A stretch of DNA of 54,337 nucleotides from Acidobacteriaceae bacterium (lineage in GTDB: Bacteria > Acidobacteriota > Terriglobia > Terriglobales > Acidobacteriaceae). How positions within the stretch are numbered: position 1 is the stretch's first letter; every line of letters starts with the position of its first letter. A model generated the notes under the pieces. It was not told the origin of the DNA. It searched no databases and saw only the letters and a program-made list of their open reading frames with translations. Positions 49,950-52,288 of the stretch are shown here, piece after piece. The stretch covers positions 1 to 54,337 of the forward strand of contig PLBE01000181.1 of the NCBI GenBank assembly GCA_003134435.1, given 5' to 3'. The position numbers were made by a program, and so were the translations under genes.

Positions 49950-51836
49950 CTAGCGGTGCGATCCAGAAGTAGGCCAAGCTTCGTCTTCGAAAAACGGCAT
50001 GGCCGAAGATTCGGGGTGCTCAAGCTCTGCAACCAGGACGGCCAAACCTACCTCACCCTTATATAAGCTATAAGGGATTCTTGGTCCGGCAGTCTTCGCC
50101 ATCATCTCTGTCTGTCTCACTGCGAGCCTGGCCATGGAGATTGCGTTGTCCAGCCAACCTGGATTGCCGGTCTGTTTGTAGAGAGTGAGCTGACTGTAGG
50201 CCTTCCCGGTGAGGCCGCAGCAGAGGGAAGGCCCCTCTTCCCGTGCGTGACGGACATCCTCGCCCGCGCCCTCGGCCAACAAAAGCCACTCAGGCTCTAG
50301 CAACAGGCGGTGTGCAAGGCTCCACAGGTGCACGAAGCCTGCGCTGCCGTTACACCAACCACCGAGTCTTGGGCTGTTGGGCCTCGTCTCGCATGGCCAA
50401 AAGACCCGTGATCCGCGCCTTTGAGCTTGGTCCGCCAGTTCTCTCAGTCTAGTTCGGACATTGTTCGGTGCCGGTACTTGCGCGGATCGCATCCAGCGAA
50501 GAGTGGCATAGAGATACCCTGCCCAGCCGTGAGCCATACCTAAATAGGTAGGGAAAGTTGGGTCTCCAATCGGACGCATTTTGTCGAACTGTTCCCACAA
50601 ACCCGTCAGCAAGCTGTTACCTGCCTCGATGAGGCTCTTAGTGTTCACCGTTGTGTCCCAGCGAAACGCGTCCACCAATAAAGAGAGCGCCAGCAAGGTA
50701 CTCGACCTGCCTAGAGTAATATCCGGATTCTCACACGCTTGACTTGAAAGCTTTAGAAAGCGCTCCGCAGCCGCAGATCGAGTCTGTACATCGCCAAAGC
50801 TGTGCGCGAGCAATGCCTGGACGCAGGCTATACCGCAAGGCGAGTGGTAAGGAGAGATACGGCCCACTGTTTCGGGAGTGATCTGGACATCCTGATGGTA
50901 GAAACCGGTGTCTTGTCCGATCTCACGTAATGCGCGATCAATCCAGCGTTCCGCCAAAGCGAACAACTGGGCGTCTTCGCGAGTGCACGCGATGCGAAAC
51001 AACCCATATGCGATGCCTGCGGACCCAAACGTAAGCGAGGCGGTTGGGAACCTCAGTCCGCAGATCGGCAAGTCAATCGTGGGATCCGATAAGGAGTTGA
51101 GCGTCGAGTCCAGCCAGTCTGTGCGGCACCGATCCTGCGCACCTCGAACTGGGTCCCTAGCAAGTGCTCGCGAGTGTTCCGGCCCTTTCGACAGAAGGGC
51201 CAAGCGACTTGAAGCAGATCGAAACTCTGCCGCCATAGCAGCCATATCCGGAAATCTTGCAGAGGGTTCTTTGCGAAGAGCACGAAACAGAACTTCATTC
51301 AATGCATCAGCGCCACGAATGCCCCGTGACGACAGAGGAAGTGGAAGATGCTCCGCAATCTGGTGGAGCATCTCTTCCTTGCCATAGGTAAAATGCAAAT
51401 AGTATTGGCCAGTCAACAAGAAGTAGATGAGTGCTGCTACAGAGTATTGCTCTCCGGCGCAACTCGACAACGGCAGCATCGAACCGGAGAGAACTGCTTG
51501 CGCGTATTCCGGTTCAAAGAAGAAACCCACGCCAGCGCGCGGCACCAACGCGAGTTCGAAATCATCGCCCTGGGAACGCGCCAGACCGTGATCAATAATT
51601 CGGACCTCTCCGTTTTCCATCACCAACAAGTTGTTGGCATGCACATCAGAATGGATCACGCCAAGGGTATGTAGCTTGGCATAGGCATCCGGGATCTCCG
51701 AACACAACGAGACAAGCTCCGGCGGAAGACGTTCCGAGTTCCTAAGATACGAATCAAAGAAGTGAAGCAGAAACGGGGTCTGGCTGCCTATGGCCGAAAG
51801 CAACAAGACCAGAATGTCAGGCTTGATCCGCTTCAT
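49950..51836 (-). CDS. Protein kinase-LanC-like protein with truncated kinase N-lobe
   Basis: Kinase and cyclase of a LanKC-like protein on one frame (open back to 52028; an ATG at 51836 is used here). Residue numbers count from 52028. Catalytic loop HSDVHANN (126-133) and IDHGLA (DFG-like) mark a kinase C-lobe; the N-lobe is absent. In its place is MKRIKPDILVLLLSAIG, like a response-regulator receiver end. The C-terminal LanC-like domain has GMAHGWAG, GGWCNGSAG and LCCGLTG, so zinc ligands C559, C603 and C604 (three Cys). LanC enzymes add cysteine to dehydroamino acids to form lanthionine. No precursor-peptide gene was found nearby. Confidence 0.78.
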   Translation of the reverse strand: MKRIKPDILVLLLSAIGSQTPFLLHFFDSYLRNSERLPPELVSLCSEIPDAYAKLHTLGVIHSDVHANNLLVMENGEVRIIDHGLARSQGDDFELALVPRAGVGFFFEPEYAQAVLSGSMLPLSSCAGEQYSVAALIYFLLTGQYYLHFTYGKEEMLHQIAEHLPLPLSSRGIRGADALNEVLFRALRKEPSARFPDMAAMAAEFRSASSRLALLSKGPEHSRALARDPVRGAQDRCRTDWLDSTLNSLSDPTIDLPICGLRFPTASLTFGSAGIAYGLFRIACTREDAQLFALAERWIDRALREIGQDTGFYHQDVQITPETVGRISPYHSPCGIACVQALLAHSFGDVQTRSAAAERFLKLSSQACENPDITLGRSSTLLALSLLVDAFRWDTTVNTKSLIEAGNSLLTGLWEQFDKMRPIGDPTFPTYLGMAHGWAGYLYATLRWMRSAQVPAPNNVRTRLRELADQAQRRGSRVFWPCETRPNSPRLGGWCNGSAGFVHLWSLAHRLLLEPEWLLLAEGAGEDVRHAREEGPSLCCGLTGKAYSQLTLYKQTGNPGWLDNAISMARLAVRQTEMMAKTAGPRIPYSLYKGEVGLAVLVAELEHPESSAMPFFEDEAWPTSGSHR

Positions 51837-51892
51837 CTCCGCACGCACGGCGATGCCAGTAGCATCAGGAGTGGCACAAGAAGGAAATCCAA

Positions 51893-52288
51893 CTATTCCG
51901 AAACCTTCGTGGCCAATGTTTCGACTACCGCGATATTTTGCAGCAGGTCCGATGGCAAGCCGTGCCTCTCTTGCAAGTAGACCGGGCTGTTGTAGGTGAC
52001 CCAGACCTTGCCGTGAGCATCTTCCCAAATCAAAATCTTTAGAGGAAGGTCGAGGGCGATACTGGGCGCCGCCAGCATCAGTGGCGTGCCCGCCTTGGGG
52101 CTTCCAAAGATCAACAGCTTGGTGGGAGGCATTTTCATTCCCACCTTCTCCGCCTCTCCGCTATGGTCAACCAGAGCGAACAGGGTAACTCCTTTCGCTT
52201 GCAGAATTCCCTTGAGCTTTTCCACCGTCTGGTCGACCGAGTGTTTGCTGGGAGTGTCGATGATCCCCTTGCCTCCGCTGGCCGTCAT
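51893..52288 (-). CDS. DUF302 family protein
   Basis: 131 residues (MTASGGKGIIDTPSKHSVDQ, TVEKLKGILQAKGVTLFALV, DHSGEAEKVGMKMPPTKLLI, FGSPKAGTPLMLAAPSIALD). GNPKAGT, followed by LPLKILIWED, is the DUF302 core; function unknown. The stop TAG lies at 51893-51895, right where the kinase frame begins to look like protein, so a deletion may have brought them together. Confidence 0.9.
   Translation of the reverse strand: MTASGGKGIIDTPSKHSVDQTVEKLKGILQAKGVTLFALVDHSGEAEKVGMKMPPTKLLIFGSPKAGTPLMLAAPSIALDLPLKILIWEDAHGKVWVTYNSPVYLQERHGLPSDLLQNIAVVETLATKVSE

What the first reader, a model, noticed from the sequence alone, without database searches (positions are those of the whole stretch)
49950..51896. 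Kinase-LanC protein with Cys-Cys-Cys zinc site and a lost kinase N-lobe
The zinc site has CCG where most LanC domains have CHG (GWCNG, LCCG), as in the high-activity, promiscuous ProcM-type cyclases. The kinase N-lobe is replaced by a short receiver-like stretch, so either it is a broken relic or a stand-alone C-lobe/cyclase. No precursor peptide is nearby.
Basis: partly seen in the sequence, partly recalled or inferred. Interest (0 to 1): 0.6.

Follow-up and report, generated by a model that had tools for sequence, protein, structure and literature searches.

The report
Truncated remnant of split lanthipeptide synthetase
The window holds the back half of an enzyme that closes sulfur rings in small peptides; intact relatives in several bacterial phyla sit beside a separate lyase gene and usually a cysteine-rich peptide gene, an arrangement that our literature searches did not find described.

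Summary
The ORF is real: a protein-kinase C-lobe plus a LanC cyclase with three Cys zinc ligands, and no kinase N-lobe. Intact homologues show that the CCG site is normal for this family (22 of 22 loci), whereas the lost N-lobe is peculiar to this copy. In its place lie about 48 codons of a response-regulator receiver gene (79-89% DNA identity to four same-genus genomes, 73% over a shorter stretch to a fifth of the same family). The genome shows no lyase partner, no recognisable precursor and only this one LanC. Best read as a truncated, orphaned remnant whose cyclase half has not yet decayed (84 of 86 family-invariant columns kept).

The larger result is the intact system: a precursor with a short leader and helical tail, a stand-alone lyase with the HopA1/LxmY fold but no Pfam HopA1 match, and a synthetase with an N-terminal PqqD/RRE-like domain, kinase and CCC-type LanC. 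It occurs in five phyla, twice on plasmids. On one plasmid the same N-terminal domain is fused to a 2OG-Fe(II) oxygenase, as expected of a portable leader-binding module. It fits none of lanthipeptide classes III-VI as described. The chemistry is inferred, not shown.

The parts
49950..51725 (-). Truncated synthetase remnant: kinase C-lobe (from about 51725) followed by CCC-type LanC cyclase (51038-49989)
   Evidence: Pfam LANC_like 101 bits, Pkinase C-lobe only; family HMM positions 224-791 of 791; 84 of 86 invariant columns kept
51630..51653 (-). Kinase catalytic loop HSDVHANN (HxD...N kept)
51585..51593 (-). DFG-position motif, here DHG (of 21 intact members aligned: DFG in 18, DLG in L031 and L051, DFT in L052)
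51501..51527 (-). Family motif GFFFEPEYA in the activation/P+1 region (same in 12 of 13 intact members aligned; SFYYEPEYA in L029)
50352..50354 (-). Zinc ligand 1, Cys of GWCNG
   Evidence: this Cys is kept in 22 of 22 loci (GWC in 20, SWC in L049 and L112)
50217..50222 (-). Zinc ligands 2 and 3, Cys-Cys of LCCG
   Evidence: LCCG in 22 of 22 loci
51730..51869 (-). Internal fragment of a response-regulator receiver gene (5' part and 3' end missing); fused in frame to the kinase C-lobe at about 51729/51730
   Evidence: 85.7-88.6% nt identity over 140 nt to G018, G007, G012; 79.3% to G017; 72.8% over 125 nt to G029
51893..52288 (-). Complete DUF302 gene just upstream; its 3' end lies about 24 bp from the receiver fragment. 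Bystander, not part of the system
   Evidence: Pfam DUF302 81.9 bits; 80% nt to G002 over 376 nt, ending at 51893

Best explanation
The window ORF is the 3' remnant of a gene for an RRE-kinase-LanC lanthipeptide synthetase. The precursor gene, the lyase gene, the RRE-like domain and the kinase N-lobe are missing, and the remaining C-lobe and cyclase are joined to a piece of a chromosomal receiver gene next to a DUF302 gene (shown by sequence; that a rearrangement did this is inferred). Without the N-lobe it cannot bind ATP in the normal way, and without a lyase no dehydroamino acids would be made for the cyclase, so it is very probably inactive as a synthetase (inferred). The intact system most likely works as follows (inferred from domains and operon). 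The N-terminal PqqD/RRE-like domain binds the short conserved leader (M-x-F-x-V-K-x-L-x-I type) of a Cys/Ser/Thr-rich precursor. The kinase phosphorylates Ser/Thr in the core. The separately encoded HopA1/LxmY-fold lyase removes phosphate to give dehydroalanine/dehydrobutyrine. The LanC domain, with zinc held by three Cys, adds Cys thiols to form (methyl)lanthionine rings. The helical tail of the precursor and the export route are unexplained.
For: Intact homologues: 14 loci found with the kinase-LanC part as query, 6 lyase loci in 5 of 396 phylum genomes found with the lyase profile, 2 plasmids found with both. All 22 carry both the lyase gene and a synthetase with the N-terminal domain, and all carry LCCG; with near-duplicates collapsed this is about 17 lineages (identities). 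Precursor profile hits in 14 of 22 (11 of those 14 built the profile; L024, L025 and, weakly, L050 are independent) and two more by eye (L111, L112). The lyase model (pLDDT 78.8) best matches P. syringae HopA1-type effectors, chain B of the LxmKY dehydratase (taken to be LxmY; Foldseek E 7e-7 to 4e-6, Z 13.2-14.0) and the N-terminal lyase regions of CuvL and ThurKC. Full synthetase model pLDDT 83.9, N-terminal domain of strands then three helices. N-domain versus PqqD profile: hhalign probability 55, score 27.7, against a top score of 20.7 in 26 control comparisons. The same N-domain (98 bits) is fused to a 2OG-Fe(II) oxygenase beside lyase and precursor on a Cupriavidus plasmid. Remnant status: profile positions 1-223 missing, receiver fragment fused, no lyase in the own genome, one LanC only.
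Against: The remaining ~590 codons show no stop or frameshift, and 84 of 86 invariant columns are kept, the same as in intact members, so loss of function must be recent or a truncated protein may still do something. The RRE assignment is only moderate: PqqD is hit below its cut-off in 2 of 10 members, best E 0.011; the PDB profile search gave no RRE; two of the 26 hhalign controls reached scores of 20.0-20.7. The lyase family has no match to Pfam HopA1 in 5 of 5 members scanned or to a PDB lyase by profile; the link is by fold alone, and its catalytic residues were not mapped. I saw no dedicated transporter or protease in the flanks, judged by eye from ORFs and annotation, not by family scans. 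No precursor was found by profile for L035, L049, L051 and L053. pTM of the full synthetase model is 0.53, so domain arrangement is unsure.
Confidence: 0.72

Rival explanations
1. The truncated protein is still a working stand-alone cyclase, or a kinase-fold scaffold, that acts on peptides dehydrated elsewhere.
For: Open frame over ~590 codons; 84 of 86 invariant columns kept; all three zinc Cys present. Separate LanC cyclases are known in class I (PMC10676316, passages) and class Vb (PMC12328550, passages).
Against: No lyase by profile in the own genome (the same profile rings in 5 of 396 phylum genomes), only one LanC, no precursor found; no good start site (first in-frame candidates after the DUF302 stop are GTG 51846-51848 and ATG 51834-51836, inside the receiver piece); half a kinase left attached.
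Confidence: 0.13
2. The junction is an assembly chimera of the contig, and the real gene is intact or belongs to another organism in the sample.
For: Genome of 261 contigs with 4.42% estimated contamination; no match reaching the LanC part in the 23 other same-genus genomes or 57 further relatives searched (at most 16 candidates per genome were scored).
Against: Two separate junctions within about 160 bp, with a receiver piece truncated at both ends, are hard to get from one misjoin; the own genome has no intact copy of this receiver (next hits 23-33% identity, E 0.16 or worse); GC content is smooth across the junction.
Confidence: 0.1
3. The family is an ordinary class IV (LanL) or class III (LanKC) lanthipeptide synthetase.
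For: Best NCBIfam hit is class IV LanL: 123.5 bits (window), 139.6-152 bits (three intact members). The fold search ranks class III ThurKC first.
Against: Far below the class IV (650) and class III (575) cut-offs; no N-terminal lyase domain but a different N-domain; lyase encoded separately in 22 of 22 loci; zinc triad CCC, not CCH or absent.
Confidence: 0.05

Closest known systems
Class IV LanL / class III LanKC lanthipeptide synthetases
   Same: Ser/Thr kinase domain followed by a LanC-like cyclase; dehydration expected by phosphorylation then beta-elimination
   Different: Lyase is a separate protein; RRE-like N-terminal domain instead; CCC zinc triad; scores 4-8 times below the NCBIfam cut-offs
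Class V lanthipeptide enzymes (LxmK/LxmY, SmoC)
   Same: Stand-alone HopA1-fold lyase; model of the partner matches chain B of LxmKY at Z 13.2-14.0
   Different: Kinase here is a PF00069-type kinase fused to LanC, not a separate APH-like LanK; partner shows no Pfam HopA1 match in 5 of 5 scanned
Class VI (LanKCb) of streptococci
   Same: Kinase and cyclase in one protein
   Different: Described as one synthetase with kinase and truncated cyclase and lyase domains, short substrates, Streptococcus only (PMC10676316, PMC12328550, passages)
ProcM-type class II synthetases (CCC cyclases)
   Same: Cys-Cys-Cys zinc triad (CCG)
   Different: Dehydratase unrelated; ProcM-type enzymes also modify precursors scattered over the genome (PMC11251773), whereas here one adjacent precursor is seen in most loci; genome-wide precursors were sought in only 6 genomes
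'L-CCC' synthetase combination counted in PMC11251773
   Same: Lyase-type dehydratase with CCC cyclase, 8 predicted peptides in that survey
   Different: The section and passages read name no RRE domain or split lyase, and its lyase profile was built from a VenL search. Whether its 8 are this family could not be checked

Membership tests
LanC-like cyclase (PF05147) | Pfam score over cut-off and zinc-binding triad | tested here: met
   101 bits versus cut-off 23.2; C559, C603, C604
Class IV lanthionine synthetase LanL (NF038150) | Score over curated cut-off 650 | tested here: not met
   123.5 (window); 143.3, 139.6, 152 for L023, L032, L028
Class IV LanL / class III LanKC | N-terminal lyase domain in the same polypeptide | tested here: not met
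   Lyase profile hits a separate ORF in 22 of 22 loci; the N-terminus matches the A4 domain instead
Class III LanKC (NF038151) | Score over 575; cyclase without zinc ligands | tested here: not met
   72.5 (window), 91.6, 96.7, 73.1 (intact); all three Cys present
Class V (LanK + LanY) | Separate HopA1-type lyase | tested here: met
   By fold: LxmKY chain B and P. syringae effectors; not by sequence: no Pfam HopA1 hit in 5 of 5 scanned
Class V (LanK + LanY) | Separate APH-like (PF01636) kinase | tested here: not met
   Kinase is fused to LanC; PF00069 outscores APH in the three intact members scanned
PqqD/RRE domain (N-terminus of intact members) | Pfam PF05402 over cut-off 23.4 | tested here: not met
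   2 of 10 members hit, best E 0.011; 12.2 bits for L023
PqqD/RRE domain (N-terminus of intact members) | Remote profile similarity and strand plus three-helix order | tested here: inconclusive
   hhalign prob 55, score 27.7 versus up to 20.7 in 26 controls; predicted secondary structure fits; domain not searched alone against PDB folds
Functional protein kinase (window copy) | N-lobe with ATP-binding Lys and alpha-C Glu | tested here: not met
   Both columns empty in the window; Lys in 20 of 21, Glu in 21 of 21 intact members aligned
Lanthipeptide producer | Thioether-containing product | not testable with these tools
   Needs mass spectrometry

The most novel reading that the evidence does not exclude
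The intact operon is a separate, so far unnamed lanthipeptide class: an RRE-guided kinase-cyclase (CCC zinc site) working with a stand-alone lyase of a sequence-divergent HopA1-fold branch on long precursors with a helical C-terminal tail, spread over at least five phyla and plasmids, and recruiting a further tailoring enzyme (a 2OG oxygenase) through a copy of the same RRE.
Probability: 0.55. Interest if true: 0.75.

Novelty: new variant of a known kind. Interest (0 to 1): 0.58.

Why it matters
A 2023 structural paper states that no core enzyme of lanthipeptide classes II-V has an identifiable RRE (PMC10604976, passages). A kinase-cyclase with its own leader-binding domain and a trans lyase would offer a modular, swappable route to ring-containing peptides, largely outside the Actinobacteria and Firmicutes that held most LanKC and LanL enzymes in an earlier survey (PMC7268733, passages). 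It would also give a naturally split lyase/kinase pair for testing how phosphorylation and elimination are coordinated. The window copy itself matters mainly as the pointer to that family.

Tried and rejected
Ordinary decay of a CHG enzyme: rejected, intact relatives have CCG (22 of 22). Receiver as a designed regulatory domain: rejected, the piece lacks the receiver's first half and its last residues, and the 22 intact loci carry the RRE-like N-domain there. Phage cargo: no match in the phage collection and no relative in viral contigs (one scan). Anti-phage role: PADLOC matches of the synthetase lie on the kinase domain and look generic. Lyase N-terminus as a second RRE: suggested by one fold row (TigE, Z 7.0) but not supported by hhalign; left open. 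A far precursor-like match in G292 (L108, E 1e-4) proved to be a secreted-looking coiled-coil protein without the leader. PDB profile search with the N-domain gave only weak hits to an Elongator subunit. NCBIfam on the N-domain: nothing useful. In one search my search pattern for the GFFFEPE motif was wrong and returned nothing; the motif is cited instead.

Rows dropped: L025 from the invariant-column test (near duplicate of L023, C-terminus spoiled by ambiguous bases) and L035 from the family alignment and tree (reading frame split in two); both stay in the counts of 22. Profiles used for counting were partly built from the loci counted: lyase 9 of 22, synthetase 12 of 22, N-domain 10 of 22, precursor 11 of 22.

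Full report
What is in the window. ORF 49950-52028 on the minus strand is open throughout. Its last ~590 codons encode a kinase C-lobe and a LanC cyclase. The first ~45 codons overlap a complete DUF302 gene, so the listed TTG start is unlikely. Zinc ligands are C559, C603 and C604. The kinase match starts at model position 99 of 263, and the family profile starts at 224 of 791. This is the only LanC found in the genome.

Homologues. With the kinase-LanC part as query, a pattern-based scan of the genome collection gave 14 loci with relatives. By their record titles they come from Acidobacteria, Eremiobacterota (Vulcanimicrobiota in the tree), Rhodocyclaceae, Roseococcus, and Bacteroidota including Dyadobacter. 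Apart from L025 (ambiguous bases) and L035 (split frame), open frames are 780-827 codons and align over their length (L035 left out); the window lacks the first ~223 profile positions. Among 80 relatives plus the own genome, 12 of 81 had a match at E <= 1e-10, own included, and none of the others reached beyond query residue 193, i.e. the kinase (at most 16 candidates per genome scored).

The CCG site. LCCG is found in 22 of 22 loci, and the first Cys sits in GWCNG or GWCHG in 20 and in SWCNG in 2. So the three-Cys site is the rule for this family. PMC11251773 (section 3.2 and passages) reports CCC triads in three cyclase clades with different dehydratases, including 8 predicted peptides next to an 'L-CCC' combination.

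The operon. Upstream of the synthetase lies a ~390-aa protein without a meaningful Pfam match and, before it in most loci, a Cys-rich small ORF. The lyase-family profile found a neighbour in 22 of 22 loci (13 of the 22 were not used to build it). On the Cupriavidus plasmid it lies on the other strand. The sampling was two-way: 14 loci were drawn by the synthetase, 6 by the lyase (5 of 396 genomes of the phylum, at most 4 candidates per genome scored), 2 plasmids by both. Some of the 22 are near-duplicates; collapsed, they are about 17 lineages. The lyase was not found in the own genome and 100 relatives (0 of 101).

The partner is a lyase by fold. Its model (pLDDT 78.8) matches P. syringae effectors 4rsx and 4rsw (Z 14.0 and 13.1; 4rsw is named HopA1 in PMC10604976), chain B of the LxmKY complex (13.2-14.0), CuvL (12.0) and ThurKC (11.2); the first unrelated rows are near 7 (Foldseek). 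By sequence it has no match to Pfam HopA1 (5 of 5 scanned) or to a solved lyase. Catalytic residues were not mapped.

The N-terminal domain. Its predicted order is strands followed by three helices. PqqD is hit weakly in 2 of 10 members. Profile-profile comparison with 30 PqqD domains from relatives' genomes gave probability 55 and score 27.7 over 47 collinear columns; 26 controls (other parts of the two enzymes and column-shuffled profiles) gave at most 20.7. On the Cupriavidus plasmid the same domain (98 bits) heads a 2OG-Fe(II) oxygenase (47.7 bits) beside a lyase and a precursor. That is the best evidence that it is a portable leader-binding module. I call it RRE-like, not proven.

Precursors. 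The profile hits 14 of 22 loci, of which 3 (L024, L025, and L050 weakly, E 0.003) were not used to build it; two more were seen by eye (L111, L112); L029 and L030 begin inside the lyase gene; L035, L049, L051 and L053 gave none by profile. Nine measured precursors have 73-250 aa, 2-20 Cys, first Cys at residue 16-52 and 37-86 residues after the last Cys. The Paenibacillus one holds three tandem leader-core units, and L048 holds CYASGG repeats. The function of the helical tail is unknown. Genome-wide, the profile found nothing in the own genome. Among five other genomes that carry the lyase it found the precursor in three (two of them members of the profile) and missed G407 and G147, so absence from the own genome is weak evidence.

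The truncation. Window 51869-51730 is 86-89% identical in DNA to three same-genus genomes, 79% to a fourth, and 73% over 125 nt to a fifth of the same family. In three of the five (G012, G017, G029) the receiver is a 114-aa ORF; in G018 it lies in a longer ORF, and in G007 it is near a contig end. In the window it begins after the receiver's first half, and identity with the receivers ends where the kinase begins. The own genome holds no other close copy of it. DUF302 ends at 51893, where its match to G002 also ends. Hence two junctions within ~160 bp. In the aligned part the window keeps 84 of 86 invariant columns; 12 intact members, each tested without its near kin, keep 84-85 of 85-91. The tree gives it a long end branch (1.01) and only moderate support for its nearest kin (91/96 with L024 and L028). 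I read this as recent loss of function, but the age cannot be measured without a close relative.

How it compares. No class III or IV cut-off is reached. PMC10604976 (passages) states that class II-V core enzymes have no identifiable RRE. Class VI is described as one protein with kinase, truncated cyclase and truncated lyase, in Streptococcus (PMC10676316, PMC12328550; passages). PMC7268733 (passages) put any LanC protein with a PF00069 kinase into class III or IV, so members of this family could have been counted there. I found no paper describing the RRE-kinase-LanC plus split lyase arrangement in the ten searches, of which I saw listings and, for some papers, passages; the library lacks most subscription journals, so this is not proof of novelty. 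In the one annotated record seen, the synthetase is called 'lanthionine synthetase LanC family protein' and the lyase and precursor 'hypothetical protein'.

Verdict. The window feature is a remnant (low interest by itself). The family it points to is a new variant of lanthipeptide machinery, with a fair chance of deserving its own class.

Noticed in passing
L112 11396-12556 (-), Cupriavidus oxalaticus plasmid NZ_CP038636.1: The synthetase's N-terminal domain is fused to a 2OG-Fe(II) oxygenase beside the lyase and a precursor: probable RRE-guided hydroxylation of a lanthipeptide.
   Followed up: partly
L111 6858-7610 (+), Paenibacillus peoriae plasmid NZ_CP011513.1: A 250-aa precursor with three tandem leader-core-helix units, each core with three Cys, annotated as hypothetical.
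   Followed up: partly
L048 9713-10240 (-): Precursor with seven CYASGG repeats followed by a less regular Cys-rich part.
   Followed up: no
L022 1-87 (+): Contig begins with the tail of a second, similar precursor, so tandem precursors occur.
   Followed up: no
L022 733-1968 (+), residues 22-123 of the lyase model: N-terminal part of the lyase matches residues 4-86 of TigE in the PDB (Z 7.0, 80 residues); possibly a second RRE-like domain, not supported by hhalign.
   Followed up: partly
L035 4386-7777 (+): Roseococcus copy has its synthetase split over two reading frames: a frameshift or sequencing error, another possibly broken member.
   Followed up: no
L053 6110-6376 (-): A short ORF upstream of the lyase with a leader-like start and two Cys in its middle, missed by the precursor profile; possibly a precursor.
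   Followed up: no
window 51893-52288 (-): DUF302 protein whose best NCBIfam match (98 bits, below cut-off 312) is the C-terminal part of a CrcB-family fluoride exporter model.
   Followed up: no
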